A stretch of DNA of 64,000 nt. Origin: Myxococcales bacterium. GTDB taxonomy: Bacteria > Myxococcota_A > Polyangia > Polyangiales > Polyangiaceae. Position numbers and translations under genes: made by a program. Under the pieces are notes generated by a model, which worked only from the letters and a program-made list of their open reading frames with translations, was not told the origin of the DNA and ran no database searches. This document shows positions 3,888 through 61,026 of this stretch, piece after piece (within the stretch, counting starts at the first letter, position 1; each line of letters begins with the position of its first letter). The stretch spans positions 38,625-102,624 of the forward strand of contig CANJCO010000010.1 of the NCBI GenBank assembly GCA_947473045.1, read 5' to 3'.

Positions 3888-5576
3888 TCAGCCCAAAACC
3901 ACCACCCTGTCGGCTATTTCGGAGGGTTCGCTGCGGTGGGTGATGAGGAGCACCGAGCGCCTGCCTCGAAGCCGCGCGATCGCCGACAGCACCATGCGTT
4001 GGGAATCGGGGTCGAGGCCGCTCGTGGGTTCGTCGAGAAGCAGCACCGGCTGGCGGGTGGCGAGGGCTCTGGCGAGGCTGATCCACTGCCGCTCGCCGCC
4101 TGACAGGGCGCGCTCGGTGACCAAGCGGGAGGTCCCCAGGTCGTGTTCGAGCCGGGAGGCTCCGATCGCCGCGAGCGCGTCGGCCGGGATTGCGTCCGGG
4201 TCGCCGAGCGCGACATTTTGCGCGAGGGTGGCTCGGAGCAGCGGCGCGTCCTGGGGAACCCACGCGAACGGTCGGGTCCGGGGGCCCGCGGGCGCTCCGG
4301 CGATCGAATTACCTGCATAATGCACGCTGCCGCCGACCTCGGCTTCAAGGCCGAGGAGGGTGCGAAGCAGCGTGGTCTTCCCGACGCCGGTTGGGCCCCG
4401 AACGACCACGATTTCGCCCGGCGCGAGCGTCAACGTCACGGGCGCGAGCGAGCCGTGCGCGAGGGTGAGTGCGTCGACGACGAGCGGCCCGACCGGCCAG
4501 GCGACGGCGCGCGGAGCGACATCGCTTTCGGTTGCGGGCTCGCGCAGCCAGGGCCTCAGGCGCGAAAAGCTCGCGTCGGCGCGGGCGAACGCCAGCCGCG
4601 CGTCGCCAAGCTCGCGCAGGGGGCGATAGGCCATGAAGAACGCGACGGCGAACGGCACAATCGAGGCGTCGGGGGTGGCGATGACGCCCGCTCTCACAAG
4701 ACCGAGCACGAGCACCAGCGCCAGACCCGCCAGCCACTCGCTCGCGCCGCTGACGCCGGCGCCCCAAAGTTCGAGCCGCGACGCGCGCTGCGTAAACGCG
4801 GCGTTCAGCTGCTGAATCTGCGCGCGCACCACGCCGCCCGCTCCGTAGGTCGCCCACAGGTCAGCGTGACGAACCGCGTCATCGGCGGCCTCGAGGAGCG
4901 CATCGGCCTGGCGCGCCGACAGCGCGTGCGCGCGCTTGAGGGCGCGTCGCGCACGGCCGAGCCCCCAGCCGAATACCGACAGCGCCAAAACGGCATACAG
5001 CGAGAGATTGGGCGCAAGCCATGCGAGGAGCGCGAGGAGCGGCGCGAGCTGAGCAGCCGCGCGCACCGATCCGAGCAGGCCGGCGGTGAGGCCGAGCTCG
5101 ACTTCGCGCACGTCGGAGGTGAGCGCGGCGAGCGCGCGTGTGGAAGTGGACGCCTCGGAGGCCGCATCGCTGGGCAATCTGTCCGGGCCATGATCGAAAT
5201 GTCGCGCCTGCCCCCTCGAAACCGCGCCCAGCCAGCCGTCGAGCACCCGCAGGCGAAGCCCGCCGCCCAAGTCGCCGGCGACCTTCGCCTGGGCGTGCGC
5301 AGCCCATGCGCCGCCGCAGACTTTTGCGCTGATCGCAGCCAATCCAAGCAGCGAAAGCCAGAACGCGGAGGCCGCGCCCGCTGCGCCGGAGCTAAGCGCG
5401 CCGCTCAAAAGGGAGCGCGCACAGGCGGCCGCTGCGAGGGCGATCGCGGCGTGGCCGAGACCGTGCATAAGCCATCCCAGCAGCAGAGGCGCCGCCACCG
5501 AGGGGCGCCGCAACACCGTCTTCGTCGCTCGCGCGTAAAAGACAAAGAGACCCGAATCGCGCGCAGCTCCGTGCAT
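3888..5576 (-). CDS. ABC exporter, fused permease and ATPase
   Basis: A 562-residue half-transporter. The first 320 residues or so hold about five or six hydrophobic segments. The C-terminal ATPase domain shows Walker A GPTGVGKTT, a Q-loop WVPQDAPL, signature LSGGERQ, Walker B VLLLDEP with D-loop SGLDPD, and a switch His in LLITHRS. The layout resembles CydC/CydD-like and peptidase-less lipid or peptide exporters. It probably acts as a homodimer, since no second half-transporter is nearby. The substrate cannot be told. It is transcribed away from the sigma factor gene across a 330-base gap. One copy of the dispersed TGYANNNTRCA palindrome lies inside it. Confidence 0.88.
   Translation of the reverse strand: MHGAARDSGLFVFYARATKTVLRRPSVAAPLLLGWLMHGLGHAAIALAAAACARSLLSGALSSGAAGAASAFWLSLLGLAAISAKVCGGAWAAHAQAKVAGDLGGGLRLRVLDGWLGAVSRGQARHFDHGPDRLPSDAASEASTSTRALAALTSDVREVELGLTAGLLGSVRAAAQLAPLLALLAWLAPNLSLYAVLALSVFGWGLGRARRALKRAHALSARQADALLEAADDAVRHADLWATYGAGGVVRAQIQQLNAAFTQRASRLELWGAGVSGASEWLAGLALVLVLGLVRAGVIATPDASIVPFAVAFFMAYRPLRELGDARLAFARADASFSRLRPWLREPATESDVAPRAVAWPVGPLVVDALTLAHGSLAPVTLTLAPGEIVVVRGPTGVGKTTLLRTLLGLEAEVGGSVHYAGNSIAGAPAGPRTRPFAWVPQDAPLLRATLAQNVALGDPDAIPADALAAIGASRLEHDLGTSRLVTERALSGGERQWISLARALATRQPVLLLDEPTSGLDPDSQRMVLSAIARLRGRRSVLLITHRSEPSEIADRVVVLG
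4314..4324. repeat. Dispersed palindrome TGYANNNTRCA, copy 1
   Basis: TGCATAATGCA, a perfect match inside the ABC exporter gene, where it encodes part of Val-His-Tyr-Ala. Confidence 0.8.
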
Positions 5577-5659
5577 GAAAGCCGAATCGACCTTACCTAA
5601 TCATGGAGCCATTCGGGGAGTTCCATCGGCCAGCGCCCACGTTACTGCGGAATAGAATT

Positions 5660-5670
5660 TGCACTTTGCA
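5660..5670. repeat. Dispersed palindrome TGYANNNTRCA, copy 2
   Basis: TGCACTTTGCA, in non-coding DNA between the ABC exporter and the sigma factor gene. Confidence 0.8.
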
Positions 5671-5812
5671 GGCGTTTGGTCGACTCCGCAGGCGACGCCC
5701 GCGGCCATCGCTCTTCACGAAAGAGGCGCGATTCGCGGCGCAATCGGCTCACTGCCAGCCACGTTGAAGTAGCGCGCCCCGTTCGATTGTCAAATTCAAA
5801 CGTTTTGGCCCC

Positions 5813-5842
5813 GTCAGACATCCAACCAAACCAGCGTCTGAC
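5813..5842 (+). promoter_or_regulatory. Perfect inverted repeat in sigma factor leader
   Basis: GTCAGAC at 5813-5819 and GTCTGAC at 5836-5842 are perfect reverse complements, 16 bases apart. A second pair, CCAAA (5826-5830) and TTTGG (5843-5847), interlocks with it, so two alternative hairpins can form. It lies 65 bases upstream of the sigma factor start and could be an operator for a dimeric repressor or a leader RNA structure. Confidence 0.45.
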
Positions 5843-5906
5843 TTTGGAAATAAAGCGACTCCCTTCGCCGTTGTACACGTCACGCCCCCACAGAGAGGTA
5901 GCAGCG

Positions 5907-8167: not shown

Positions 8168-9376
8168 CGGGCCGAGCATCGCGATGCGCTGCAGCGCGGC
8201 CGGGTGCGCGGGGCTCCTCGCAAGCGCCACCTGATACAGCGCCCGCGCGTCAGCCAGCGCGCCCATCAGACCCAGCAGATCGCCGCCGAGCACGAGCAGG
8301 TCGGCGTTGTCCGAATGCCGCGCGATCGCAGGCTCGATGACGCGCAGTCCTGCTGCGGCCTCTCCCGACGCGAACAGCAACCGGGCCAGCGCCTCGCGGC
8401 AAGCGTCCTGAAGCGGATCGAGCGCGACGGCCCGCTCCAGCGCGCCACGGGCTCCCGCGAGATCGCCCGCCCTGAGCAAGGCGAGGCCGAGGTCCGCGTG
8501 CGGCGCGGCGTGGTCTGGGTCGTCGGCAGCCAGCCCGCGCAGCAGCGCGATCGCTCGCGGCCAGTCGTCGGCGGCCATCGCGACATCGGCCGGCTCGCGA
8601 AGGTGACCATACAGCGCGAGCCGCGCGCGCGGGCTCTGGCGAATGGCGTCGCGGTAGCGGTCGCGCAGGCGGGCCTCCTGCTCGGGAAACGCTGACGATC
8701 CGCGACCGGACAGGGAGCTTCCGTCGACGTCGCGGTGGAACGCGCAGGTCACGACGGGCACGTGCCGAAACGCGCAGGAGCGCGAGAGACGTATCCACAG
8801 GTCCCAGTCCTCGAGAACGGGAATGGTCTCATCGAACATCCCAACTTCTTCGAGGCAGGCGCGCTCGTGCAAGATACACAGCGTTGGGATGTAGTTGGTG
8901 AGCAGCAGCTGTTCGGCGTCGTGATCCCGCGAATAGGGCACGTCGCGTGAGACCTCCGCCCAGCCGGGCCCCTCTTTGCGCTGACTGATGCGAACGGCGT
9001 CGCTGTAAGCGAGGCGCGCGCCCCCCTCGCCGAGCGCGGCAACCAGCGTAGTCAGGTGCTCGGGGAAGAACACGTCATCGTCGTCGAGATAGGCGACGAA
9101 GCGGCCTCGGGCGAGGCGCAGTCCAGCGTTTCGTGCCGCCGCGACGCGGCCGTTGTGCCCCGTACGCACGTAGGTCACGCGAGGGTCCGCGGTGAGCGCG
9201 GCGACCTGTGACTCCAGCGGACCGCCTCCGTCGTTGACGACGATGACTTCGAGGTCAGCCATGGTCTGGGTCAGCACGCTTTGCACTGCACGCTGGAGCG
9301 ATTCGGGGCGTTCGAACGTGGGGATGATGACGGAGACGAGCGGCGCCGCGCGCTCGGGCAGGTCGGTCGTGCGCAT
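8165..9376 (-). CDS. Family 2 glycosyltransferase with TPR tail
   Basis: A 403-residue protein. Residues 12-250 form a GT-A fold: SVIIPTFERPESLQRAVQSV at the start, VVNDGG, and the metal-binding DDDD in FVAYLDDDDVFF. The distal part carries EDWDLWIRLS. The remaining 150 residues are TPR-like helices (HAAPHADLGLALLRAGDLAG and following). It probably adds a sugar to a cell-envelope glycan. It lies 27 bases after the kinase stop and downstream of the PBP4 gene, which suggests a role in wall or surface polysaccharide metabolism. One copy of the dispersed palindrome lies inside. Confidence 0.9.
   Translation of the reverse strand: MRTTDLPERAAPLVSVIIPTFERPESLQRAVQSVLTQTMADLEVIVVNDGGGPLESQVAALTADPRVTYVRTGHNGRVAAARNAGLRLARGRFVAYLDDDDVFFPEHLTTLVAALGEGGARLAYSDAVRISQRKEGPGWAEVSRDVPYSRDHDAEQLLLTNYIPTLCILHERACLEEVGMFDETIPVLEDWDLWIRLSRSCAFRHVPVVTCAFHRDVDGSSLSGRGSSAFPEQEARLRDRYRDAIRQSPRARLALYGHLREPADVAMAADDWPRAIALLRGLAADDPDHAAPHADLGLALLRAGDLAGARGALERAVALDPLQDACREALARLLFASGEAAAGLRVIEPAIARHSDNADLLVLGGDLLGLMGALADARALYQVALARSPAHPAALQRIAMLGP
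8868..8878. repeat. Dispersed palindrome TGYANNNTRCA, copy 3
   Basis: TGCAAGATACA, inside the glycosyltransferase gene. It encodes Cys-Ile-Leu-His on the minus strand, with TTG for Leu. Confidence 0.8.
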
Positions 9377-12672: not shown

Positions 12673-14169
12673 ATTACCACGACACGCGCCGGCGCCGCCA
12701 AGACGCTGATCGCGTGCGCGGCCCTTTCGCTGGCGGCGTGCAAAGGCCACAGTCGCGACGGCGACACAGCCCTCGAAGTGGTGGTCTCGTCCGACGCCGA
12801 AACCCTCGACCCGCGCTTCGTCACCGACGCGACCGGCCTGCGCATCTCGCGGCTCGTGCACGCCGGGTTGATGCGGCTTGATCCCGACACCGGGGCGCCC
12901 GTGCCCTACCTCGCGCGCGGCGTAACGACCTCGCCCGATGGACTCACCGTCACCTTCCAGCTGCGCGAGGACGTCTATTTTCACTCCGGCGCGCCCTTGA
13001 CCGCGCGCGACGTCGTCGCGACGATTCACGCGCTTCGCGATCCCCGTCTTGCGTCCCGTCACGCGCGGGTTCTTGGCGCGATCGCAGGCGCCCTCGACAC
13101 CGATCCGCACACGGTCGTCGTGACCCTCTCCCGCCCGCATGCCACCACGCTGACCGACCTCGAAGTCCCGGTGCTCCGCGCCGATCAAGTGTATGATGCA
13201 CCTGATCTGGGAGGTACCCTCGATGGGCTCGGTCCCTATCGCGTCGTCACGCGCGCGCGCGGCAGCGTCGAGCTCGCGCCCGCCGATCGCGGAGCCTTGC
13301 CGCGACCGGCGCACGCCGTTCGGGTGCGCTCGCTGCGCGACGAGAACGCCAGGGCGCTGCGACTGCTCACGGGCAGCAGCGACGTGGCCATCAACGCGCT
13401 GTCCCCCGCGCTGCTCCCGTCGCTCGAAGCGCAGGGGCTGCGGGTGGCCTCGCGACCGGGCCTCAGCGTGAACTACGTCGTGATGCGCCTCGATCGCGGC
13501 CCCTTCGCGAGCCTCGCCGCGAGGCAGGCGCTCGACGCGTCGATCGATCGCGAATCCATCGTGAAGCACCTGCTTTCAGGGCGCGCGCAGATCGCCCGCG
13601 GCCTGCTGTCACCTTCGCACTGGGCAGCGGCCGGCGGCGAGCCCCCCGCCGCGTTCGACCTCGCGAGGGCGAGGGCGCTGCTCGGAGGCGCACACCTGCG
13701 CGCGACGCTGCTGTGCGGCACCGACAGGCTCCGCGTCGACGTGGCCCGCTCGATCGCGCAGGACGCGGCGGGCGCCGGGCTCGATCTCGAAATCGTCCCG
13801 CTCGAACTCGGGGCGCTGCTCGCGCGCCTGGCCGCGGGCGACTTCGACGCCGCGACGCTTCAGCTTCCGGAGCTCGTGGAGCCGAATACGCTGCGGGTTT
13901 TCTTGCATAGTACATCGATTCCGCCCCAGGGCTCCAACCGTGGCCGCGTTCGCGATCAGGCGCTCGACGAGCTGCTCGACGACGGCGAGGCCACCGGCGA
14001 CCGGAGTCGTCGCGCGGCGATTTACGCGAAGCTCGAGGCGCGCATTCGCCAGCAGGCGTTTGTGCTTCCGCTCTGGCACGAAGACCAGATCGCCGTGACG
14101 GGGCCGCGGGCTGCAGGCTTTCAAACGAGCGCGGAAGGTCGCTGGTTGGGCCTCGCAGCCCTGCCTTGA
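12673..14169 (+). CDS. Family 5 solute-binding lipoprotein (peptide type)
   Basis: About 498 residues. A clear lipoprotein signal (LIACAALSLAAC, Cys23 from the start used here) leads into a DppA/OppA-like protein. The motifs are AETLDPRFVTDATG, LTVTFQLREDVYFHSG and the late LPLWHEDQIAVTGP. It should capture peptides or related solutes outside the inner membrane. No permease or ATPase gene adjoins it; two lone permeases lie at 32.8-35.4 kb. The start is problematic: no in-frame ATG, GTG or TTG lies between the divergent PBP4 start and the signal sequence. I used ATT at 12673, preceded by GGAGAGGG. Two copies of the dispersed palindrome lie inside. Confidence 0.8.
   Translation: MTTTRAGAAKTLIACAALSLAACKGHSRDGDTALEVVVSSDAETLDPRFVTDATGLRISRLVHAGLMRLDPDTGAPVPYLARGVTTSPDGLTVTFQLREDVYFHSGAPLTARDVVATIHALRDPRLASRHARVLGAIAGALDTDPHTVVVTLSRPHATTLTDLEVPVLRADQVYDAPDLGGTLDGLGPYRVVTRARGSVELAPADRGALPRPAHAVRVRSLRDENARALRLLTGSSDVAINALSPALLPSLEAQGLRVASRPGLSVNYVVMRLDRGPFASLAARQALDASIDRESIVKHLLSGRAQIARGLLSPSHWAAAGGEPPAAFDLARARALLGGAHLRATLLCGTDRLRVDVARSIAQDAAGAGLDLEIVPLELGALLARLAAGDFDAATLQLPELVEPNTLRVFLHSTSIPPQGSNRGRVRDQALDELLDDGEATGDRSRRAAIYAKLEARIRQQAFVLPLWHEDQIAVTGPRAAGFQTSAEGRWLGLAALP
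13190..13200. repeat. Dispersed palindrome TGYANNNTRCA, copy 4
   Basis: TGTATGATGCA, inside the solute-binding lipoprotein gene, encoding part of Val-Tyr-Asp-Ala. Confidence 0.8.
13904..13914. repeat. Dispersed palindrome TGYANNNTRCA, copy 5
   Basis: TGCATAGTACA, inside the solute-binding lipoprotein gene. It encodes Leu-His-Ser-Thr with the uncommon codons TTG, AGT and ACA. Confidence 0.8.
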
Positions 14170-21348: not shown

Positions 21349-22507
21349 CAGCTGTCGTGATAGTCGGCGCGCTCGATGCCGAGCGCCTGCGCGGTCGGCA
21401 GCAGCGGCTCGAACGTGTCGCACATCACCGCGAGCTCGTCGGTCGACTTGCTCCCGATGCTCGCCTCGTAGGCGCCCGGATGGGGGCCGTGGGCAATACC
21501 TGCAGGATGCAACGAAATCGCACCGGGTCCGACGCCGCGCCGACTGGTGAAGTTGCCGCGCAAGTAGAGGATCACCTCGTCGCAGTCGACGCTCGAATGC
21601 GGATACGGGCACGGGATCGCGTGCGGGTGGTAGTCGGTCACCCGGGGCACGAACGAGCAGATGAGAAACCCGCGCCCCTCGAACGTGCTGTGAATCGTGG
21701 GCGGCAAGTGTATCAAGCCCGTTTTTGGCTGGTATTTCTCAATATTAAACGCCCACGGGTACACGAAGCCATCCCAGCCAACCACGTCCATCGGAGCCGT
21801 CTCGAGCAGGTAACGCGTAAAGCGCCCTCCCCGCTTGACCAGCAGCTCGCGCGGGCCGTCGAGCGGCTGATCGGGCGAGGCGATCGGGCCCGTAGGGTGC
21901 ACGAAATCGCGATGCGTGTAGGGCGCATCCATTCGCAGCTGACCGACCGGATTGCGAAACTCAGCGGGGATGAAGACGCTGGGCGCCTCGAAGATCATCA
22001 CCCGAAGCTCGGGCGAGGTCAGGTGCCAGCGGTGAATCATGCCGTGCGGAACGTGCACGTAGTCTCCCGCTGCGACGTCGAGCCAGCCGCACGGCGACTC
22101 AAGACGGGCGGAGCCTTCGTGAATGAAAAACAGCTCGTCGCCGTCGCCGTTGGAGAAATACGCGTCATCGCTGGTGGTGACGCGCGCGAGCAGTATGGTC
22201 ACGTCGCGGTTGAAGAGCACCGGGGTGCGCGCGTCGATGAGCTGTCCCGCCGCCGGAAGCGCATCCGAGAGGTAGAGCCGGCGCTTGAGCGGAAACGCGC
22301 CGTCGGGAGCCGCGACAGGCGGGTGAAAACCGCGCGTGGTGCCCCCCACCTCGAGGTGCGGCGTCACCGGATTGCGATGATAGAAGTAAGTAAACGGGCC
22401 CGAAAACCCGCCGCGCGTGAACATCTCTTCATGAAAGAGGTGGCCGCGCGCGTCGCGAAAAACGGTGTGGGGCTTCGGGGGAACGATCCCCGCGCTCTGA
22501 CGGTCAA

Positions 22508-22511: not shown

Positions 22512-25541
<3,030 letters not shown>

Positions 25542-40071: not shown

Positions 40072-40085
40072 CCGGGAAACAGACC

Positions 40086-42497
40086 ATGAAAGCCTCATTT
40101 GCCTGGTTGAAGCAGCTCGTCCCGCACCTGCCTGATGACCCCCGCGCGCTCGCCGATCGGCTCACCGCGGCGGGCATCGAAGTCGAGGGCATTACCGCCT
40201 ACGGGCAGGGAACCGAGACGTGCGTCCTCGCGTGGGTGGTATCTACGCGTCCTCACCCCACCAAGAGCGGACTGCGGCTGGTGACGGTTGACCGCGGCGA
40301 GGGCTCGCAGGAGATCGTGTGCGGCGCGCCGAACGTCCCCGAACCCGGCGGCGTCGTCGTGCTCGCGCCCCTCGGAGCGCACCTGCCCGCGAAGAACATG
40401 ACGATCGGTCGCCGCGACATCGGCGGCATCGTCAGCGAGGGCATGCTTTGCAGCGAGAGCGAGCTCGGCCTCTCCGACGAGTCGGCCGGCATCCTCGTGC
40501 TGCCGCCCGGCTTTGCGCCGCCCGGAACACGCCTCAACGACGCCATCCCCGAAACCCGCGACAGCATCTTCGAAATCGGGCTGACGCCCAACCGACCCGA
40601 CGGTCTCGGGCACATCGGCCTGGCGCGCGAGGCGGCGGCGCTGCTCGGAGTGCCCTGGACGCGGCCCGATCCCGAGGCGCCTGTGCGGCAGCGCGACGGG
40701 AGCGCCGTAGACGCCGTGTCGATCGCCATCGCGGCGCGCGATCGCTGCGCGCACTACGGTGCGTCGGTCGTTGAATCCGTGACGATCGGTGCGTCGCCGT
40801 CGGGCATTCGCTACCGCCTCGCCGCGCTCGGCGTTCGATCCATCTCGACGGCGGTCGACGTCACCAACCTCGTGATGCTTGAGTTCGGGCATCCACTCCA
40901 CGCCTTCGATCTCGACAAAGTGCGCGGCGCCGCGCTGATCGTGCGACGGGCAACCGAGGGCGAGCAGCTCATCACGCTCGACGGCGTCACGCGCGCGCTC
41001 GCCGCAGACGACCTCGTGATCGCCGACGCAGAGGGCCCCATCGCGCTGGCAGGAGTGATGGGCGGCGCGTCGAGTGAGATTTCGGCCTCGACCACGCGGG
41101 TGCTGCTCGAGTGCGCGACGTTCGATCCGCGCAGCGTGCGCCGAACGGCACGCCGCCACGGGCTGCACTCGGAGTCGAGCCACCGCTTCGAGCGCGGCAT
41201 CGATCACAGCGACTCGCGCGACTGCCTCGCGCAGGCCACAGCGCTGACGGTGCGCCTGTGCGGGGGAACCGCGCTGCGCGATGCGGCGTTCGCCGAGGGC
41301 GATGCGCCAGCGGCAGTCAGGGTCACGCTGCGCGCCGGCGCCGCGCGACGCGTGCTCGGCATCGACATCACCCCCGCCGAGTCGAAGGGCACGCTCGAGC
41401 GACTCGGACTTCGCGTGGTGGCCGAGAGCGACGAAGCCCTCACGCTCGAAGTCCCCGCGCACAGGCCCGATCTGACGCGAGAGATTGATCTCGTGGAGGA
41501 GCTGGTTCGCGTGCGCGGCATGGATACGGTGGCGGCCGAGTTGCCCTCCGTGAGGCCTACGCGGCCGTGGGGCGGACGCGAAGCGCTGCTGCGCAGGGTG
41601 CGCGGCGCGGGCGTTGCGCTGGGCCTGTCCGAGGCGTTGACGTTCGGCTTTACGTCGCGCGCCTCGCTCGCCGCGATGGGCGCGCCGGAGCCAGCTGTCG
41701 CCCTGCAAAATCCGCTGACCTCCGAGCTCGATGTGATGCGCACGAGCTTGCTGCCGGGTCTCTTCGAGGCCGCGAGCCGCGCGCGCAGGCACGGGGAAGG
41801 CAGCCTCGCGCTGTTCACCACAGGCGTCGTTTTTCTGTCGGGCGAGGGACCGAACGCACTTCCACGAGAGCCCGCCATGTTCGCGGCGGTGCTCGCAGGG
41901 GAGGCACCGGCGCGCCTCGCCAAGCCCCGCCCCCGCGACGTATGGGACGCCACCGGGCTCGCGCTCGAGCTGGTCGCCCGCCTCACGCGCGAGGCGCCTG
42001 AGCTGCTCGCAGACCCGAACGCGGCACCGTACCTGCACCCCCGCGGAGCCGCCTCGATCCATGTGCATAATACACGTGTTGGCGTCCTGGGACCGATTCA
42101 CCCAAACGTCGCGGAGGCGCTCGACGTCGATCCGCGCGCGCTGATCGTCGAGATCGATCTCGACGCCATCGCCGCCGTGGGCACCCGGGTGCCGCACTAC
42201 GCGCCGATTCCGCGCTTTCCCGCCTCCGCCCGCGACATCGCGCTCGTGGTGCGCGATGACGTCGCTGCGGGGCTGGTGCTCGGCGCCGTGCGCGAGGCCG
42301 CCGGACCGCTCGCCGAGGGCGTGAGTCTGTTCGATCGCTTCACCGGACAGCACGTGCCCGAAGGTCACGTGAGTCTCGCGCTGCGCATCGTCTATCGCGC
42401 GACCGATCGCACGCTCACCGACGCCGAGGTCGACCAAAGCCACGCCAGAGTGGTGGCTGCGATCGCCGACCGGTTCAGCGCGACGTTGCGGGCGTGA
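40086..42497 (+). CDS. pheT: Phenylalanyl-tRNA synthetase beta subunit
   Basis: An 803-residue subunit from ATG 40086. Domains in order: the EMAP-like tRNA-binding fold (about residues 40-150, with GAPNVPEPG and EGMLCSESELGL), the B3/B4 editing region (ESSHRFERGIDHSDS and neighbours), B5 (RAGAARRVLGIDITPAE), the core fold, and the C-terminal anticodon-binding domain (FPASARDIALVVRDD to the end). The length is normal. A very long open frame on the opposite strand is an artefact of GC-rich codon use. One copy of the dispersed palindrome lies inside. Confidence 0.97.
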   Translation: MKASFAWLKQLVPHLPDDPRALADRLTAAGIEVEGITAYGQGTETCVLAWVVSTRPHPTKSGLRLVTVDRGEGSQEIVCGAPNVPEPGGVVVLAPLGAHLPAKNMTIGRRDIGGIVSEGMLCSESELGLSDESAGILVLPPGFAPPGTRLNDAIPETRDSIFEIGLTPNRPDGLGHIGLAREAAALLGVPWTRPDPEAPVRQRDGSAVDAVSIAIAARDRCAHYGASVVESVTIGASPSGIRYRLAALGVRSISTAVDVTNLVMLEFGHPLHAFDLDKVRGAALIVRRATEGEQLITLDGVTRALAADDLVIADAEGPIALAGVMGGASSEISASTTRVLLECATFDPRSVRRTARRHGLHSESSHRFERGIDHSDSRDCLAQATALTVRLCGGTALRDAAFAEGDAPAAVRVTLRAGAARRVLGIDITPAESKGTLERLGLRVVAESDEALTLEVPAHRPDLTREIDLVEELVRVRGMDTVAAELPSVRPTRPWGGREALLRRVRGAGVALGLSEALTFGFTSRASLAAMGAPEPAVALQNPLTSELDVMRTSLLPGLFEAASRARRHGEGSLALFTTGVVFLSGEGPNALPREPAMFAAVLAGEAPARLAKPRPRDVWDATGLALELVARLTREAPELLADPNAAPYLHPRGAASIHVHNTRVGVLGPIHPNVAEALDVDPRALIVEIDLDAIAAVGTRVPHYAPIPRFPASARDIALVVRDDVAAGLVLGAVREAAGPLAEGVSLFDRFTGQHVPEGHVSLALRIVYRATDRTLTDAEVDQSHARVVAAIADRFSATLRA
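42064..42074. repeat. Dispersed palindrome TGYANNNTRCA, copy 15
   Basis: TGCATAATACA, inside pheT. It encodes Val-His-Asn-Thr with AAT and ACA, followed by CGT and GTT. Confidence 0.8.
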
Positions 42498-42545: not shown

Positions 42546-43796
<1,251 letters not shown>

Positions 43797-45743: not shown

Positions 45744-47465
45744 CGCGCGGCTCTCGGTGCCTGGCGTGCGCTGAACGTTAATCGCAGGGCCCTGCCCCAG
45801 CATGCTGCTCATGAGCTCCTGCATCAGATCGCGGACCTCCGGCTTCGCCTTGAGGTGCGCTACGAGCAGCGCGGAGGCCTCGCTGAAGGCCTTCTCGAAA
45901 TCGACACCTTCACGCGTGCGCCCGGTGACCTTTTCGCGCCCCTGCGCGAGGTCTTCTTCGAGCGCTTCGGCGTAGCGCGCGAGCTGGGCGCGAAGCTCGT
46001 CGATCTGACGTCGCAAATCGCGCGCGTGAGCGTCTTTGACGCTCGCCTTTTGCTCGCGTTCGGCGAGCTGCTCGGTGCGCGCATCGAGCATCGCATTGGC
46101 GGCGCCCGAGCGCTCGAACACAGCGCGAAGCTGCGCGGACGGCGGCTGCTGGGCCGCGAGATCGGCCTGCTGGCGGGCGAGCCCCGCGTTCTTTTCGGCC
46201 ACCTGCCGCTGCTCACGCAGACGGGCGGCTTCCTGCTGTTCGGCAGCGGCATCACGGAGCGCGCGAGACTCTTCGTGGGCAAGCTCTTCAACCTTGCGAC
46301 CGATCTCGGCGCGCAGCGCGCGACCCCTGCGCTCGAGCGACTCGAGCTTGCGCGTATGACTCGCCACCTCACCCTCGAGGCGCGTTGCGCGCGCAGCCAA
46401 ATCCCATGCAGTCTGCAACGCCGCGGCGACGTCGGCAGGAGCGTTGCCGGACGGATACGCGCGGCTCACCATCCGCGAAAAGAGGGCGGCGCGGTTGGCC
46501 CACTCTGTGACGCCGGGAGACTGCGGCGGCGGCGGCGGCGGCGGCGGCTGCGCTTCACCGGCGGCTCCCGGATCCCACGCAGTGCTCGGCAGCGCGCGTT
46601 GCAGCGCCTTGAGGTCTTCGTGGAGATGGTGGGCGTCCTGGAAGCGACGACGGCGATCCTTCTCGAGCAGCTTCAGGACGATGGCCTCTGCGGCCGGGGC
46701 GATGTCGGCCTTGATCGATCGCGGCTTGGGCGGCGGGCTCGTACGCTGCATTTCGAGCAGCGTGTCGCGGTCGTTCGAGCGGAAGGGCAGCTGCCCCGTG
46801 AGCATCTCGAAGAAGAGCACGCCGAGGGCGTAGAGGTCGCTCTGGGGCCCCGCCTCTTCGCCGCGCGCCTGCTCGGGAGACATGTATTCAGGCGTGCCAA
46901 ACACGGCACCCTTGGGAGCGAGGCGCGGGTCCATCGCGAGGTGGGCGAGCCCGAAATCGAGAATTTTGACGAAGTCTTTGCGACCGCCGCGGACGCTGAG
47001 CAAAATATTGTCGCTCTTCAGATCGCGGTGCACAACGCCGAGGTCGTGCGCGCGGCCGAGCGCTGCGCACATCTGCTCGAGAATATCCACGCTGCGCGAC
47101 AGGAGCATCGGCCCACGCGCGAGCTCGCTCGAGAGCGCGGTGCCCACGAGGTACTCCATCACGAGATAGAGCTCGCCCTCCTCGGTCTCGCCGATGTCGT
47201 GAATGTCGATGATGTGCGCGTGATCGACCCGGTTGGCCGCGCGCGCCTCACGGAGCATCCAGGCACGCAAGTGCGTCTCGCCGCGCAAATCGGGGCGAAT
47301 CAGCTTGAGCGCGACCACGCGGTCGATGAGCACATGGCGTGCGCGGTAGACGATTCCCATCCCGCCTTCGCCGGCCCGCGCCTCGAGTCGGTAGCGGCCC
47401 GCGACGACGCGGCCGAGCATGGGGTCAGCGGGCTTGGTGCCAGTCGAGCGCGAGGTCTGGTTCAT
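45738..47465 (-). CDS. Soluble Ser/Thr kinase with coiled-coil tail
   Basis: A 575-residue kinase from ATG 47465. Kinase elements: GEGGMGIVY, Lys54 in VALKLI, Asp148 in VHRDLKSDN, DFG at 170-172, and AVFGTPEYMSPEQ. A run of eight Pro residues joins it to a long helical region (about 370-545) with heptad-like Glu/Arg/Ala/Leu composition, a likely coiled coil, including repeated Gln/Ala stretches. No membrane helix is visible, unlike the other kinases of this window. It is the last gene of a leftward series that starts at 55.4 kb. One copy of the dispersed palindrome lies inside. Confidence 0.92.
   Translation of the reverse strand: MNQTSRSTGTKPADPMLGRVVAGRYRLEARAGEGGMGIVYRARHVLIDRVVALKLIRPDLRGETHLRAWMLREARAANRVDHAHIIDIHDIGETEEGELYLVMEYLVGTALSSELARGPMLLSRSVDILEQMCAALGRAHDLGVVHRDLKSDNILLSVRGGRKDFVKILDFGLAHLAMDPRLAPKGAVFGTPEYMSPEQARGEEAGPQSDLYALGVLFFEMLTGQLPFRSNDRDTLLEMQRTSPPPKPRSIKADIAPAAEAIVLKLLEKDRRRRFQDAHHLHEDLKALQRALPSTAWDPGAAGEAQPPPPPPPPQSPGVTEWANRAALFSRMVSRAYPSGNAPADVAAALQTAWDLAARATRLEGEVASHTRKLESLERRGRALRAEIGRKVEELAHEESRALRDAAAEQQEAARLREQRQVAEKNAGLARQQADLAAQQPPSAQLRAVFERSGAANAMLDARTEQLAEREQKASVKDAHARDLRRQIDELRAQLARYAEALEEDLAQGREKVTGRTREGVDFEKAFSEASALLVAHLKAKPEVRDLMQELMSSMLGQGPAINVQRTPGTESRAP
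46407..46417. repeat. Dispersed palindrome TGYANNNTRCA, copy 17
   Basis: TGCAGTCTGCA, inside the coiled-coil kinase gene. It encodes Leu-Gln-Thr-Ala with TTG and ACT. Confidence 0.8.
46523..46548. repeat. Triplet repeat (GCG)n encoding poly-proline
   Basis: A pure 26-base GCG/CGG run, read on the minus strand as eight Pro codons between the kinase domain and the coiled coil. It is a potential slippage site whose length could vary between strains without breaking the frame. Confidence 0.85.
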
Positions 47466-48326: not shown

Positions 48327-48950
48327 TCAGGGCCGGTCCAAAGGGGCATTTTCGGCGCGCATCACGCGCGCGTCGGTGACGATCCACTGCACCGGAACAT
48401 CGCCCTCGCCGACGGGCAGTTCGACCAGCAGCTGAAACTCGAAGCACACCGCGATCGTGACCGCGGGCGGCGACCACGCGGGCATCGCGCGGTCGTAGAA
48501 CCCCGCGCCGTATCCGAGACGAAAGCCGCGCGGCTCCGTGGCGAGCGCCGGCGCGATGATGACGTCGAGCGCCTCGGCCACCGGCGCATCGGGCGGCGGC
48601 TCTTCGAAGCCCAGACCCCGCTCCTCGAGCGCGGCGCAGTCGCCGACGACTCGAAACGTCATCTCCCGCGTGTCGGCGTCGATCGAAGGGTACGCGAGCG
48701 CCACGCCGCGGGCGCGCAGCGCCTCATCGAGCGTGCGAAGGTCGACCTCGTGCCGCGCCAAAATGGGCCAGAACAGCGCTACGGTGCGTGCATTCTGCAC
48801 AGAGTCGTGGGCGAGCAGCGACGCGACGATCCGCCGCGAGCGCTCGAGGCACGCGCTCTCGGGCGTAGTGTTACGCAGGCCCCGCATGCGCTTTCGGAGC
48901 TCCACTTTCGCGCGTCGCACGATCTCGTCATCAGGCGGAAGTCGGCTCAT
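48327..48950 (-). CDS. 5-formyltetrahydrofolate cyclo-ligase
   Basis: A 207-residue enzyme that converts 5-formyltetrahydrofolate to methenyltetrahydrofolate using ATP. Landmarks are the N-terminal KVELRKRMRGLR, VALFWPILARHEVD, and the glycine-rich ATP/folate loop FRLGYGAGFYDRAMP. It starts inside the end of dam with a 4-base ATGA overlap, so the two are co-translated although they share no known pathway. One copy of the dispersed palindrome lies inside. Confidence 0.92.
   Translation of the reverse strand: MSRLPPDDEIVRRAKVELRKRMRGLRNTTPESACLERSRRIVASLLAHDSVQNARTVALFWPILARHEVDLRTLDEALRARGVALAYPSIDADTREMTFRVVGDCAALEERGLGFEEPPPDAPVAEALDVIIAPALATEPRGFRLGYGAGFYDRAMPAWSPPAVTIAVCFEFQLLVELPVGEGDVPVQWIVTDARVMRAENAPLDRP
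48789..48799. repeat. Dispersed palindrome TGYANNNTRCA, copy 18
   Basis: TGCATTCTGCA, inside the 5-formyltetrahydrofolate cyclo-ligase gene, encoding Val-Gln-Asn-Ala. Confidence 0.8.
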
Positions 48951-51992: not shown

Positions 51993-53626
51993 GACGCTTC
52001 GTCTTGCTCGGGCTTGCGCGGCTTGCGGCTCGGAACGATGCCCTCGGTGCTTCGCCGGCGCAGCCCGACCGCGAGCCCCAGCAGCGCGGCCGCGAGGGGC
52101 ATGAAGATGAGCACGTAGCGGCGGACCTCGGCGCGCGCTTCGTCGTTGATGCGCATTCCCGCCGACACCGTCGGTCGCGCCGGGATGTCGAGCACCTGCG
52201 GCTTCGACGCCATCCACGCGAGACTGTTTTCGACGAGCAGCGCAGCTCCGCGGAACGGCGTGGGCGCGTGCCAGTTCTGTGCGCTCATCGCGGAGGCCGA
52301 ACCCACGACGACAACGCGCGGACCGTGCGACGCCGCCGGACTTGTCTTCGGGCGCTCGCTGGCCATCGCGAGGACGAACGGGCCGGGCACGTCGGCGCCC
52401 TCACGCTCGGGCAACTGGTCGGGCGAGGTGCGGGCGATGGCCGTGGCCCGCTCGACGCTGACGGCAAACGACTGGTCGCTCGACACGACGAGATCACTGG
52501 CGGGTGACGCGCCCGCGGCCGCGACGTGTTCGAGCACCCGGGTGGTGTCGACGACGATGTGCGGAGGGCTGCGATTTTCGTCAATCTGCGCCAGCGCCTG
52601 GGTGACCGGATGCGCCTTCGCCTGCGCGACAAACGTGTTGGCGCGCGTGTCGGGCACCATAAGCTTTGGATCGGGATCGAGCACGAGGCGGTCACCGAGA
52701 GCGATGCCGAACGGCTCGAGCACAGGCTTGAATTTCGGCGACGCCGCGTCACTCTCGGGGCCGATCGCGAGCAGCAGACTGCCGCCGCCGAGCAAATAGG
52801 AGCGAAGGCGCGTGACCTCCGGCTCGGTCATGGCGCCGAGCGAGCGCGCGCGCACACTCGGCGAAGCGATCACCACGGCCGCGCAGGCCGCGAACGGATC
52901 GCGGGCGTCTTCGAGCGTGGTGTCGACGGCGACCGGCTCGTAGTTGTCTTTGTCGAGGATCTCGCGAAGCAGCCCGAGCCCCTCGTCGGTCGGGTCTTCG
53001 ATCGATCGCTCTCCGTGCCCGGACACGAAGCAGATGCGCGCGCGATCACCCGCGAGCACGTTGCGAATCGCACCCGTAAACGCCTGCTCTTCTCGCGGCT
53101 TGGCCTTTGTGTCCTCGCCCTCGGAGACTTCGATCAGATCGCTGGCCGTGAGAAACCACCGGCGCTCACCGGACGTCGCGATCGCGATGGCGTCGGCCAC
53201 CACGCGACCGTCGCTCGTGCGCCCCGTCTCGAGCTTGAACCGCTTGCGAATGTCGTCGAACGCAAGGGCATCCTTGTCCGGATCAATGTAATGTACATCG
53301 ATTTTGGTCGTCTCCGACTGATAGCTCGCAAGCAGGTGCTTGATCGACTGCTCCATCGGATCGCCGCCGCCAAGCAGCACCCACACTTGCACCGTGTCGG
53401 AGAGCCCGTGCAGCGTCTCGAGGGTCGGCGGCGTCAGGGTGTAGAGCTTGCCCTTCGTCCAGTCGGCGCGCACGAAGTGGCGCGCAGCCAGCACATTAAG
53501 CAGCACCGCGATGGCGAACGCCGCGGCGACGCCTCCGAGGTGCGTGGCCCTCGCCGCGTTTCGCGCGAGCGATTTGCGATCCAATTTCTGCGGAGCGGGC
53601 TTGGCGGAAGCCTTTTTTGCGGCCAT
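51989..53626 (-). CDS. GldG-like ABC system auxiliary protein
   Basis: A 545-residue membrane protein from ATG 53626. GGAGG stands 8 bases upstream and the ATG shares one base with the previous stop (TGATG). One N-terminal helix, a large periplasmic part with the GldG-type pattern (YTLTPPTLETLHGLSDTVQV, INVHY-like KIDVHYIDPDKD, ICFVSGHGERS, LRSYLLGGGSLLLAIGP), and a final helix (RRYVLIFMPLAAALLGLAVGL) are visible. In Bacteroidota GldA, GldF and GldG are needed for gliding; in other phyla the role is open. One copy of the dispersed palindrome lies inside. Confidence 0.85.
   Translation of the reverse strand: MAAKKASAKPAPQKLDRKSLARNAARATHLGGVAAAFAIAVLLNVLAARHFVRADWTKGKLYTLTPPTLETLHGLSDTVQVWVLLGGGDPMEQSIKHLLASYQSETTKIDVHYIDPDKDALAFDDIRKRFKLETGRTSDGRVVADAIAIATSGERRWFLTASDLIEVSEGEDTKAKPREEQAFTGAIRNVLAGDRARICFVSGHGERSIEDPTDEGLGLLREILDKDNYEPVAVDTTLEDARDPFAACAAVVIASPSVRARSLGAMTEPEVTRLRSYLLGGGSLLLAIGPESDAASPKFKPVLEPFGIALGDRLVLDPDPKLMVPDTRANTFVAQAKAHPVTQALAQIDENRSPPHIVVDTTRVLEHVAAAGASPASDLVVSSDQSFAVSVERATAIARTSPDQLPEREGADVPGPFVLAMASERPKTSPAASHGPRVVVVGSASAMSAQNWHAPTPFRGAALLVENSLAWMASKPQVLDIPARPTVSAGMRINDEARAEVRRYVLIFMPLAAALLGLAVGLRRRSTEGIVPSRKPRKPEQDEAS
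53287..53297. repeat. Dispersed palindrome TGYANNNTRCA, copy 19
   Basis: TGTAATGTACA, inside the GldG-like gene. It encodes Val-His-Tyr-Ile with the uncommon GTA and ATT. Confidence 0.8.
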
Positions 53627-55473: not shown

Positions 55474-55484
55474 TGCATAGTGCA
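55474..55484. repeat. Dispersed palindrome TGYANNNTRCA, copy 20
   Basis: TGCATAGTGCA, non-coding, ending 5 bases before the ATG of the FGE-like lipoprotein gene, where it would overlap the ribosome-binding site. Confidence 0.8.
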
Positions 55485-56956: not shown

Positions 56957-56967
56957 TGCAGTCTACA
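56957..56967. repeat. Dispersed palindrome TGYANNNTRCA, copy 21
   Basis: TGCAGTCTACA, in the 27-base gap between the response regulator and DUF3293 genes, 5 bases before the latter's start. Confidence 0.8.
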
Positions 56968-58680: not shown

Positions 58681-58720
58681 CCGCTCAGTCTATCGCCGTT
58701 TGCGCGGGCGCACGCGAGCT

Positions 58721-59578
58721 TCACAGCAGGGCAGCCAGCATCGCGTTGTAAGGCGCAGGACAGCGCAGCCACAGCGCCAGCGCGAGCGCTCCCTGGCGCG
58801 CGAGCATTCCGAGGCCGCCCGAGTGACGCAGACCGTGGGCTCGCGCCGCCTCGACAAATGGCGTGTCCGAAGGCGCGTAGACCACGTCGAACGCGAGCGC
58901 GCGCGCCGGAAGCGCGTCCCACGTCACGGCCTCGCGGACGGTCTGCCCCGAATCGGCGCCCGCCATCCCCGCGCTCGTTGCCTGCAAAATACAAATAAAG
59001 TCGCGGTCGTCCGCCCGCGCGACGATCGGCTCGCCCGTCACGCGCACGTGGCAGCCGACTGCCGTGAGCAGCCCCTGCATTTCCGCTGCGAACGCAGCCG
59101 CTCCGGAGCGCCCACGCACAACGATGTCGGTCGCTCCCAGCTCAAGCGACAGCGCGGTGACAGCAGCCCGCGCAGCTCCGCCGGTGCCGATCACCAGCGC
59201 ACGCCCCGCCGCGAGGGCGCCCGCGACGTCGGGCCCGAGCGCCGCGAGCTCGGCCGCGATCGCAGCCACGTCGGTGTTGGTCGCGTGCACCCGGCCGCCG
59301 GCGACATAAAGCGTGTTGGCGGCGCCCGCGATCGCCGCAGTCGAGGCCACCACGTCAGCAAACGGCAGAATCGCCCGCTTGTGCGGCAAGGTAATGTTGA
59401 AGCCAGCGAACGCTCCGGAACGCAGCTCCGCCACGCGCGCTTGCAGCTCGCCCGCGCCTGTGCGGAGCGCTTGATAGGTGTGCGGCAGTCCGAGCTCCGC
59501 GAACGCAGCCGCCTGCATGACCGGGCTCTTCGAGTGCGCCACGGGGTCGCCCAAAAGCGCGAAGCGCAGCGGGATCAC
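58721..59578 (-). CDS. aroE: Shikimate dehydrogenase
   Basis: A 285-residue enzyme reducing 3-dehydroshikimate to shikimate with NADPH in aromatic amino acid synthesis. Landmarks are LLGDPVAHSKSPVMQ, GFNITLPHKRAI with the catalytic Lys, GAANTLY, TNTDV with the catalytic Asp, the NADP-binding VIGTGGAARAAV and the late GLGMLARQGALAL. Its start overlaps xseA by 4 bases. One copy of the dispersed palindrome lies inside. Confidence 0.93.
   Translation of the reverse strand: MIPLRFALLGDPVAHSKSPVMQAAAFAELGLPHTYQALRTGAGELQARVAELRSGAFAGFNITLPHKRAILPFADVVASTAAIAGAANTLYVAGGRVHATNTDVAAIAAELAALGPDVAGALAAGRALVIGTGGAARAAVTALSLELGATDIVVRGRSGAAAFAAEMQGLLTAVGCHVRVTGEPIVARADDRDFICILQATSAGMAGADSGQTVREAVTWDALPARALAFDVVYAPSDTPFVEAARAHGLRHSGGLGMLARQGALALALWLRCPAPYNAMLAALL
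58983..58993. repeat. Dispersed palindrome TGYANNNTRCA, copy 22
   Basis: TGCAAAATACA, inside aroE. It encodes Cys-Ile-Leu-Gln with ATT and TTG. Confidence 0.8.
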
Positions 59579-61026
59579 CGCTCGGCCTCGCCGCCTTCGG
59601 TGGCCGCGACGATTGCGTGTATTTTACCCGAATGTACACGCAGCGAGATCGCGTCTCCCGGCTTCAGGTCGCCGGCGCGGCGCACAGCCTGGCCGCTCGC
59701 CGTGAGCGCGATGGCGTAGCCGCGTGACAGCACCTTGAGCGGCGAGAGCGCGTCGAGCGAGGCCGCGCGATTCGCGAGGGTGGCGCGCTCGCGGGCAAGG
59801 CGGGCCGAGACGAGCGACGCCATGCGCGCCGTGAGCCGATCGACCGCCGCGCGCTCGCGCACCAGCACGACCCTCGGATGAAGCAGCGCGAGCCGCTTGC
59901 CGAGCTGCGCAACGCGGCGACTGCGCTCAGAGGCGATGCGCGCGGCGGCCTGCGCGAGGCGCGCGTCGAAGTCGTCTTTCTTTTGCTGCCAGCTCGCCAG
60001 CACGAGGCGCGGATCGCTCAGCGCTCCCTGCGCGCGAAGCCATTCGTTGCGCTGCTGCGTGAGGCGCACCTGCATGGCGCGCGACAGCAGCGCGACGTTC
60101 TTCTGCAAGAGCGCGCGACGGGCCGCGCGGTCGGGCACGAGCATCTCGGCCGCCTGTGACGGCGTCGCTGCGCGCGCATCGGCGACGAAATCGACGAGCG
60201 GCACGTCTACGTCGTGGCCCACTGCCGCCACCACCGGCACGCGGCACGCAGCGACGGCGCGCACCAGCGCCTCATCGCTGAAGGCGAGAAGATCGTCTGC
60301 CGCGCCCCCGCCGCGACCCAGGATGATCACATCGACCCCTGCGATGCGCGAGAGCAGCTCGAGCGCGCGCACCATCGATTCGGCGGCGCCGGCACCCTGC
60401 ACCCGAGCGGGCGCCAGCAGCACGTGCGCTCCCCCGCGCCGGGCCGCCACGCGCACGATGTCGTGAATCACCGCGCCGGTCTCGCTGGTCACCACGCCCA
60501 CGATGCGCGGCTCGGACGGCAGCGCCCGCTTGCGTTCGGGGTCGAACAGCCCCTCGGCCAGCAGCTTCGCCTTCAGGCGCTCGAGGGCTTCGAGCAGCGC
60601 CCCCTTACCCTCGTCGTCGACGCGATCGCCCACCATCTGGAGGCGGCCCCGGGGAGCCCAAAACGCCGGCTTGCCGCGCACACGAATGCGCGAGCCGTCC
60701 TTCACCAGACCGCGGGCCCGGGGCGTGAGGCTCGACTTGTAGACGACGACGTCGATCATCGCGTCTTCGTCTTCGTCTTTAAGTGTAAAATACAAGTGTC
60801 CACTGGCCGCCGGCCTCGCGTTTGCGACTTCGCCTCGCACGAGCACAGCGCGGGGAAACGCGCTGTCGACGCCTCCGCGAATCGTTCGTCCCAGCTCAGC
60901 CACCGACAGCACGACCGGCTCGGCGGGCGCAGCGGGCGCGGCTTCCAGCGGAAAGGGAAACGAAGCCGAAAAGTCGAACGAAAGCGACGGGTCTCGGGGG
61001 CGCTTCGGCGGCGGGCGCTCGCTCAT
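59575..61026 (-). CDS. xseA: Exodeoxyribonuclease VII large subunit
   Basis: A 483-residue subunit of the single-strand DNA nuclease, from ATG 61026. The N-terminal OB fold has VLVRGEVANARPAASGHLYF and RIRVRGKPAFWAPRGRLQM. The catalytic domain has VTSETGAVIHDIV, LAPARVQGAGAAESMV, IILGRGGGAADDLLAF, VAAVGHDVDVPLVDFVADAR and ATPSQAAE. A helical arm and a short C-terminal barrel follow, containing the terminal VLSRGYAI. The small subunit gene xseB is not adjacent. One palindrome copy lies inside, and a near-match (TGTATTTTACC) lies at 59618. Confidence 0.95.
   Translation of the reverse strand: MSERPPPKRPRDPSLSFDFSASFPFPLEAAPAAPAEPVVLSVAELGRTIRGGVDSAFPRAVLVRGEVANARPAASGHLYFTLKDEDEDAMIDVVVYKSSLTPRARGLVKDGSRIRVRGKPAFWAPRGRLQMVGDRVDDEGKGALLEALERLKAKLLAEGLFDPERKRALPSEPRIVGVVTSETGAVIHDIVRVAARRGGAHVLLAPARVQGAGAAESMVRALELLSRIAGVDVIILGRGGGAADDLLAFSDEALVRAVAACRVPVVAAVGHDVDVPLVDFVADARAATPSQAAEMLVPDRAARRALLQKNVALLSRAMQVRLTQQRNEWLRAQGALSDPRLVLASWQQKKDDFDARLAQAAARIASERSRRVAQLGKRLALLHPRVVLVRERAAVDRLTARMASLVSARLARERATLANRAASLDALSPLKVLSRGYAIALTASGQAVRRAGDLKPGDAISLRVHSGKIHAIVAATEGGEAER
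60784..60794. repeat. Dispersed palindrome TGYANNNTRCA, copy 23
   Basis: TGTAAAATACA, a fully symmetric copy inside xseA. It encodes Leu-Tyr-Phe-Thr with TTG and ACA, followed by CTT and AAA. Confidence 0.8.

What the first reader, a model, noticed from the sequence alone, without database searches (positions are those of the whole stretch)
4314..60794. A dispersed 11-base palindrome, TGYANNNTRCA, about once per 2.5 kb
Reading the whole window by eye I find 23 perfect matches, at the positions listed as copies 1-23. With base frequencies near A=T=0.16 and G=C=0.34 the expectation is about 1.2. Judged instead from the observed number of TGCA and TGTA half-sites (roughly 230, estimated while scanning) it is about 0.8. 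The other half-site spacings serve as an internal control: I noticed only single cases with 1, 4 or 5 bases between half-sites, and two inside a low-complexity repeat for 2. The three central bases are about 30% GC and never all G/C. The motif is symmetric, so a dimeric protein or a methylase is a natural reader. It fits no site I know (LexA, Fur, parS, matS, Noc, HIP1). A genome-wide binding site for a nucleoid-organising protein, or an epigenetic mark, is my leading idea.
Basis: partly seen in the sequence, partly recalled or inferred. Interest (0 to 1): 0.93.

Follow-up and report, generated by a model that had tools for sequence, protein, structure and literature searches.

The report
Chromosome-wide strict DNA palindrome in myxobacteria
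In one branch of a myxobacterial family, a strict 11-base mirror-image DNA motif is scattered hundreds to two thousand times through each genome, mostly inside genes where checked, far above chance, and it is likely the docking site of a still unidentified paired protein that would organise the whole chromosome.

Summary
TGYANNNTRCA occurs 23 times in the window and 936 times in the 5.15 Mb genome, against 86 for the reversed control. In sampled coding sequence 89 sites are seen where codon shuffling gives 7.3. Only spacing 3 is enriched; the two halves vary independently; one-off versions show no excess (623 seen, 665 expected); the same weaker outer letters appear in five genera. Sites lie in genes in proportion to coding length (90 of 103), use disfavoured codons, and within genera are kept in 21 of 34 aligned cases against 5.9 expected; between genera no excess is kept. 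Motif-rich genomes form one side of a 100/100 split in an rpoB tree. My reading: a dimeric DNA-binding protein uses the motif chromosome-wide, probably as a nucleoid organiser. MatP is absent from 21 genomes searched, Lrp/AsnC from 4. Two methylase families occur with and without the motif, though the Dam-like one carries a clade-specific residue in 11 of 12 motif-rich genomes, so a methylase is not excluded.

The parts
4314..4324 (.). site 1 TGCATAATGCA, inside an ORF
5660..5670 (.). site 2 TGCACTTTGCA, between called genes
8868..8878 (.). site 3 TGCAAGATACA, inside an ORF
13190..13200 (.). site 4 TGTATGATGCA, inside an ORF
13904..13914 (.). site 5 TGCATAGTACA, inside an ORF
21501..21511 (.). 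site 6 TGCAGGATGCA, inside an ORF
24590..24600 (.). site 7 TGTATCTTGCA, inside an ORF
26155..26165 (.). site 8 TGCAATATGCA, inside an ORF
28691..28701. site 9 TGTATACTGCA, inside a called ORF (intergenic in the cruder); kept in same-genus G001
30509..30519 (.). site 10 TGCAGTATGCA, inside an ORF
33425..33435 (.). site 11 TGTACCATACA, inside a transporter permease ORF; lost in G001
33663..33673 (.). site 12 TGTATTTTACA, inside the same ORF; kept in G001 with one Y/R change
36457..36467 (.). site 13 TGCAGCTTACA, inside an ORF; kept in G001, G183 and G013, not in G132, G012, G005
39825..39835 (.). site 14 TGTATTCTGCA, inside an ORF; kept in G013 and G183, not in G001, G132, G012, G005
42064..42074. 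site 15 TGCATAATACA, inside the ORF used as query (pyruvate phosphate dikinase by recall)
43337..43347 (.). site 16 TGCATTATGCA, inside an ORF
46407..46417 (.). site 17 TGCAGTCTGCA, inside an ORF; not kept in any of six relatives aligned
48789..48799 (.). site 18 TGCATTCTGCA, inside a 5-FTHF cyclo-ligase ORF; not kept in G001 or G012
53287..53297 (.). site 19 TGTAATGTACA, inside an ORF
55474..55484 (.). site 20 TGCATAGTGCA, between called genes
56957..56967 (.). site 21 TGCAGTCTACA, between called genes
58983..58993 (.). site 22 TGCAAAATACA, inside an ORF
60784..60794 (.). site 23 TGTAAAATACA, inside an ORF

Best explanation
TGYANNNTRCA is a chromosome-wide motif, kept above expectation within genera of one myxobacterial clade, and is most likely the binding site of a symmetric two-subunit DNA-binding protein that would fold or partition the chromosome rather than switch single genes. 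Shown: the strict core with one enriched spacing, independent halves, shared outer letters implying a footprint of roughly 23 bp in five genera, indifference to gene boundaries, and use of disfavoured codons. Inferred: each subunit reads one TGYA half-site and touches the A/T-rich step about one helical turn from the centre; only perfect cores are occupied well enough to help the cell; sites closer than about 250 bp add little, so the genome carries about one per 2-21 kb; bound dimers act as bridges or anchors. The protein itself is not identified.
For: Spacing 3 only: 103 against 1-16 at each other spacing from 0 to 30 in 464 kb. Codon shuffle 89 vs 7.3 (G000), 127 vs 6.1 (G013), 56 vs 6.7 (G005). 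Half-site letters multiply as independent choices, e.g. G013+G183 CC 83 / mixed 74 / TT 16 against 83.2 / 73.5 / 16.2. Outer letters shared by five genera: -9 T 0.45-0.56 (control 0.08-0.25), -9 G 0.02-0.10 (0.25-0.37), -10 A 0.36-0.42 (0.11-0.20). 90 of 103 sites coding where 0.90 of bases are coding, no preferred place in genes. Within-genus retention 21 of 34 vs 5.9 expected, binomial P 1e-8; several kept sites change Y/R or spacer letters while the eight fixed positions stay. Site codons have relative adaptiveness 0.46 vs 0.80 (G000), 0.60 vs 0.79 (G013, G005). Intervals under 250 bp 20 against 36.8 in random placement; 750-2000 bp in excess. Clade split 100/100.
Against: The protein was not found; no binding or structural data exist. 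Between genera sites are not kept beyond expectation: 4 of 21 aligned cases against 4.2 (summed; the same window sites recur in several comparisons), so positions turn over and no single site is indispensable. Density varies tenfold inside the clade (48-481 per Mb), and within genus g5 from 264-268 per Mb down to a count below the control in G339 (178 vs 217), odd for an essential organiser. The absence of a one-off excess is unusual for protein-binding sites, which are normally graded. In G000 two symmetric two-off forms are raised: TAYANNNTRTA 6 vs 0.9 and TTYANNNTRAA 20 vs 8.7, both strands. Short-interval avoidance is strong in G000 (2 vs 10.8 under 500 bp) but weak in G013 (22 vs 26). A Dam-like methylase gene shares the clade's history.
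Confidence: 0.48

Rival explanations
1. A DNA methyltransferase reads the palindrome, and the sites accumulate as HIP1 does in cyanobacteria, for repair or self-marking.
For: HIP1 is a dispersed palindrome tied to orphan methylases and replaced sporadically by others (PMC4390886: abstract, section 2.6 and part 1 of section 3.4 read). A strict all-or-none core fits an enzyme. In the Dam-like D12 methylase, NGLW beside the presumed recognition loop is found in 11 of 12 motif-rich genomes and in 0 of 13 motif-poor ones; those 11 copies group together, 98/94.
Against: That mark follows the species tree, so it may be shared descent only. Motif-rich G009 (83% complete) has just the NGLY form, and G005 has both. 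NGL.R.N is kept in 27 of 27 copies, rich or poor; it resembles Dam as I recall it, so GATC is my prediction. PF02086 is in 25 of 25 genomes, 12 rich and 13 not. PF01555 is in 21 of 21, 10 rich and 11 not; the one full-length copy in each of the two densest genomes has 50-53% relatives in motif-poor ones. Outer-letter and A/T-spacer preferences are unusual for a methylase. HIP1 one-off sequences are common; here they are not in excess. C5 and gamma-class methylases were not searched.
Confidence: 0.2
2. The motif is a self-recognition or uptake signal: DNA carrying it is preferentially taken up or recombined, so copies spread by molecular drive, as with Neisseria and Haemophilus uptake sequences.
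For: Dispersed in coding sequence without regard to gene position, few close pairs, no one-off excess. Drive would also explain weak, position-free retention.
Against: Palindromic and symmetric, while uptake sequences as I recall them are directional. No competence gene was examined. The highest densities are in small genomes (G013, G183), though some genomes near 9 Mb are dense too; drive alone does not predict either.
Confidence: 0.17
3. Operators of an ordinary global transcription factor.
For: Dimer-like symmetry and footprint.
Against: 13 of 103 sites are intergenic where about 10% of bases are; no preference for gene starts. Lrp/AsnC, whose recalled half-sites resemble TGYA, is absent from 4 of 4 motif-rich genomes searched.
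Confidence: 0.07
4. Neutral by-product: mutation bias, codon context or a repeat family that contains the motif.
For: Codon choice in G+C-rich genomes can create word bias. One one-off word, TTCA, is low at spacing 3 in G000 (1 vs 10.4) and G013+G183 (1 vs 4.2), though not in G005+G132 (6 vs 5.4).
Against: Markov and codon-shuffled expectations are 8-24 times too low; only one spacing is affected; flanks beyond about 12 bases are unshared; kept and changed sites mostly align without gaps, so they arise by substitution.
Confidence: 0.03

Closest known systems
HIP1 (GCGATCGC) and alternate HIPs of cyanobacteria
   Same: Dispersed palindrome, genome-wide enrichment, present in some lineages and not others, reader debated.
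   Different: Other sequence, gapped and degenerate core; about 2 to 20 times sparser than the one per 1000 nt given for HIP1; one-off sequences not in excess; wide weaker outer letters; no discriminating methylase shown.
matS, read by MatP in Escherichia coli
   Same: Palindrome of two half-sites around a 3-base spacer (GTGAC RNY GTCAC; PMC6907758 passages), read by a dimer.
   Different: matS has 23 copies in one macrodomain; here hundreds to thousands spread throughout. MatP is absent from 21 of 21 genomes searched.
DNA uptake sequences of Neisseria and Haemophilus (recalled)
   Same: About a thousand strict copies, mostly in genes, weak selection or drive per copy.
   Different: Those are directional; this is a gapped palindrome. 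No uptake data.
FadR/GntR and Lrp/AsnC (FL11, Ss-LrpB) operators (recalled)
   Same: Two short half-sites, A/T-rich spacer, 11-15 bp core, spacer 3 in some members.
   Different: Few sites, at promoters; no Lrp/AsnC protein in 4 of 4 motif-rich genomes. GntR proteins not searched.

Membership tests
HIP-type highly iterated palindrome | short palindrome far above chance across the genome | tested here: met
HIP-type highly iterated palindrome | one-off sequences common (PMC4390886 section 2.6) | tested here: not met
   623 seen vs 665 expected in five genus samples
HIP-type highly iterated palindrome | cognate methyltransferase in carriers | tested here: inconclusive
   PF01555 and PF02086 present with and without the motif; NGLW form of PF02086 in 11 of 12 rich and 0 of 13 poor genomes, confounded by descent; other families not searched
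matS/MatP | MatP protein present | tested here: not met
   0 of 21 genomes; E. coli control found
matS/MatP | sites confined to one macrodomain | tested here: not met
   2-8 sites in each of twenty 20-kb stretches from ten contigs
Lrp/AsnC regulon | AsnC_trans_reg protein present | tested here: not met
   0 of 4 motif-rich genomes; found in 11 of 14 control genomes
Promoter operator of a transcription factor | concentration upstream of genes | tested here: not met
   90 of 103 coding; spread over all deciles of gene length
DNA uptake sequence | raises DNA uptake | not testable with these tools
   needs a cultured strain
Restriction target | avoidance in the host genome | tested here: not met
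   enriched 8-21 times over codon shuffle
Interspersed repeat or mobile element | copies share flanking sequence | tested here: not met
   no clear letter preference beyond about 12 bases from the centre

The most novel reading that the evidence does not exclude
A clade of myxobacteria writes a genome-wide architectural code: a strict gapped palindrome, installed by substitutions throughout genes and read by an unidentified dimeric protein that shapes the whole chromosome, a sequence-specific nucleoid system unlike MatP, HIP1 or uptake sequences.
Probability: 0.41. Interest if true: 0.88.

Novelty: new variant of a known kind. Interest (0 to 1): 0.78.

Why it matters
Few bacterial motifs are known to be dispersed over a whole chromosome and kept there. 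This one is strict, easy to count, traced to one clade with motif-poor sister genera for comparison, and measurable in any genome of the group. If read by a protein, it gives a sequence-defined handle on whole-chromosome organisation; if read by a methylase or uptake machine, it gives a HIP- or DUS-like system in another phylum. Either way the origin of such a system can be placed on a tree.

Tried and rejected
Lrp/AsnC as reader (recalled resemblance of half-sites): no PF01037 protein in 4 of 4 genomes. MatP: none in 21. Methylases PF01555 and PF02086: found in every genome searched, rich or poor. The window's own PF02086 gene (48947-49837, minus strand) was followed further after the first check of this report: 29 copies from the 25 genomes were read and 27 aligned (two were too distant, and one search's short partial matches were not fetched); the result, told under the methylase rival, made me raise that rival from 0.17 to 0.20, lower the best explanation from 0.50 to 0.48 and the novel case from 0.42 to 0.41. 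GATC itself is close to expectation in motif-rich and motif-poor samples (ratio 0.88-1.05 in nine genomes). Hairpin or RNA reading: mixed C/T half-site choices, which weaken or break pairing, are as common as independence predicts. An asymmetric longer motif: orientation fitting gave no convincing one-sided extension (its null was not run). A different enriched palindrome in motif-poor relatives: none at G013's strength in 88-100 kb samples of G014, G028, G022 or in 23 kb of G003, too small to exclude sparse ones. 'Patchy' distribution, my first impression, was replaced by the clade split. Searches read some loci on a wrong strand or frame; corrected (methylases; four rpoB pieces).

Literature: searches listed no paper on this motif by title or abstract start; the exact pattern returned 0 papers. 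The HIP1 and matS papers came; two searches gave nothing used. This covers open-licence PubMed Central only.
Full report
OBSERVATION. The window is bases 38625-102624 of contig 10 of a 5.15 Mb genome that holds 936 sites against 86 for the reversed control. In 464 kb (window plus twenty 20-kb stretches) there are 103 sites at spacing 3 and 1-16 at each other spacing from 0 to 30. Markov models of order 3 and 4 expect 7.0 and 6.7; shuffling synonymous codons within each gene, which fixes protein and codon use, expects 7.3 +- 1.9 in coding sequence where 89 are found. The window is denser (23 in 64 kb) than the genome mean (one per 5.5 kb).

WHERE IT COMES FROM. The query ORF at 39885-42497 finds its best relatives in Myxococcota, first a Polyangiaceae MAG at 55% identity. 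The genome family is unnamed in the tool; I call it f1. One f1 genome (G012) has a contig of the same length, 53,143 bases, as the record labelled Sorangium cellulosum isolate SulCav, so they are probably the same (inferred).

ANATOMY. Only perfect cores are clearly enriched. Counting one perfect half with the other half one letter off, at spacing 3 against same-phase spacings: G000 148 vs 147 (sd 12), G013+G183 135 vs 173 (sd 17), G005+G132 202 vs 207 (sd 14), G012 93 vs 99 (sd 5), G026 45 vs 39 (sd 6) (smaller sets word by word). Two symmetric two-off forms are raised in G000, TAYANNNTRTA 6 vs 0.9 and TTYANNNTRAA 20 vs 8.7 on both strands. The C or T at the third position of each half is chosen independently of the other half, closely so in G000, G013+G183 and G005+G132, roughly in G012 and in G026, which has only 28 sites. 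Spacers are A/T-rich: 29, 49, 23, 2 sites with 0, 1, 2, 3 G/C in G000. Outside the core, five genus samples share the same weaker letters on both sides: A at -10, T and not G at -9, C at -7, G and not C at -6; A at -11 is raised in four of five. The implied footprint, about AATRCG-TGYA-NNN-TRCA-CGYATT, is 23 bp. These letters are compared with flanks of the same half-sites at other spacings. With a step-like benefit for perfect cores, near-misses stay at their neutral level under simple mutation-selection balance; that is my reasoning, not a tool result.

PLACEMENT. 90 of 103 sites fall in called genes where 0.90 of bases are coding, spread over all deciles of gene length, with reading frame 0 rare (9, against 43 and 38). 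The gene calls are from my own codon-model script. Density does not follow codon bias quintiles, and site codons are much less preferred than average: 0.46 vs 0.80 in G000, 0.60 vs 0.79 in G013 and G005. In 436 sites on 1.47 Mb from seven genomes, intervals below 100 bp number 7 (null 15.1), 100-250 bp 13 (21.7), 250-500 bp 28 (33.2), 750-1000 bp 37 (26.9), 1-2 kb 102 (83.4). In G000 alone under 500 bp: 2 vs 10.8; in G013 22 vs 26. Pieces of rpoB from the 13 motif-rich genomes carry 0 sites where 8.8 would be expected at genome density; these are orthologues and not independent.

EVOLUTION. Aligned pairs within genera keep the motif in 3 of 6 (G000-G001), 9 of 16 (G013-G183) and 9 of 12 (G005-G132) cases, 21 of 34 in all, where windows matched for flank identity and A/T content predict 5.9. 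Kept sites often swap C for T in a half or change the spacer (for example TGCACCCTGCA to TGCATCCTACA), while the fixed positions hold. Of 13 lost sites, 11 differ at two or more of the eight positions and 2 at one. Sequences around kept sites are also more similar (0.75-0.78) than around lost ones (0.65-0.67); the control matches for this. Between genera retention is 4 of 21 against 4.2 expected (summed over the nine comparisons that had aligned sites; the same window sites recur in several), so positions turn over on longer time scales. Most aligned cases are free of gaps, which points to substitution rather than insertion.

DISTRIBUTION. Of 108 f1 genomes, 12 have at least five times the control count and 31 at least twice (counted by hand; the control is not composition-matched). 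In an rpoB tree of 26 genomes (30 asked; G002, G003, G034, G035 had no match), the 13 with 48-481 sites per Mb lie on one side of a 100/100 branch and the 12 with 4-12 per Mb, with the outgroup G040 (14 per Mb), on the other. With that outgroup the rich genomes are a clade; relations inside it are weakly supported, and one-gene trees can mislead. Among 282 genomes of the phylum, counts outside f1 are mostly near or below the control; G279, G214, G149 and G059 are raised (65-106 per Mb, 2-3 times control), and some with low counts exceed the control severalfold (G241 160 vs 24, G118 109 vs 28). None of these was tested against a composition model. Within genus g5, two small genomes have 264-268 per Mb and eight genomes of 8-12 Mb only 18-76.

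READER. The symmetry and independent halves point to a homodimer, the outer letters about one turn from the centre to contacts beyond the core. Searches for it: MatP 0 of 21; AsnC_trans_reg 0 of 4; N6_N4_Mtase in 21 of 21, with the full-length copy of the two densest genomes related at 50-53% to copies in motif-poor genomes; MethyltransfD12 in 25 of 25. Of the D12 copies, 27 were aligned: all keep NGL.R.N, but the residue after NGL is W in 11 copies from 11 of the 12 rich genomes and in none of 14 copies from the 13 poor ones; the exceptions among rich genomes are G009 and the second copy of G005. The 11 copies group at 98/94. Since the rich genomes are themselves a clade, this is what descent alone would give, and a small D12 enzyme reading an 11-bp gapped palindrome with outer letters would be unprecedented as far as I recall; still, it is the one gene seen whose form tracks the motif. 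A winged-helix or ribbon-helix-helix protein would fit by geometry (recalled); apart from MatP and AsnC none was tested.

MECHANISM. The most likely account is a dimeric protein bound all over the chromosome, with benefit from perfect sites, saturating at short distance, as expected of an organiser that bridges or anchors DNA. The rivals are a HIP1-like methylase and an uptake or exchange signal; the data on sites alone do not separate the organiser from the uptake signal well. HIP1 differs in its common one-off forms and its methylase link (PMC4390886: abstract, section 2.6 and part 1 of section 3.4 read). matS shares only geometry (PMC6907758: passages read).

VERDICT. A real, strong, within-genus conserved and clade-restricted chromosomal motif with an unknown reader.

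Noticed in passing
window 48947-49837 (minus): Dam-like D12 adenine methylase beside a 5-FTHF cyclo-ligase ORF; the family is present in 25 of 25 f1 genomes searched, a single match in 17 of them. NGLW form in 11 of 12 motif-rich and 0 of 13 motif-poor genomes.
   Followed up: partly
L081 (G005:C1:30001-50000) bases 6824-7015: A repeat of about 190 bp with dozens of matches, mostly 84-96% identity, across contigs of G132, some beside a second short repeat (8633-8725); looks like a mobile or MITE-like element.
   Followed up: no
L198-L223 (rpoB loci): No motif site in rpoB pieces of 13 motif-rich genomes, 8.8 expected at genome density; rpoB codon bias is ordinary in G000 (rank 0.55) but high in G013 (0.86) and G005 (0.98).
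   Followed up: partly
G000 sample (L016-L035, window): Other gapped palindromes over their spacing control: ATTG-N7-CAAT 11 vs 0.6, AATT-N9-AATT 9 vs 0.45, AAAA-N6-TTTT 24 vs 3.2, GAAC-N8-GTTC 23 vs 5.05. Some may be terminators or operators.
   Followed up: no
G000, G013, G183, G005: No protein with the AsnC_trans_reg domain found, a regulator family found in 11 of 14 control genomes.
   Followed up: no
genus g5 genomes G005, G132, G336-G345: Motif density falls from 264-268 per Mb in 4-5 Mb genomes to 18-100 per Mb in 6.6-12 Mb genomes of the same genus.
   Followed up: no
G279, G214, G149, G059, G241, G118 (same phylum, other families): Counts two to seven times the reversed control; composition effect or a second occurrence, not tested.
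   Followed up: no
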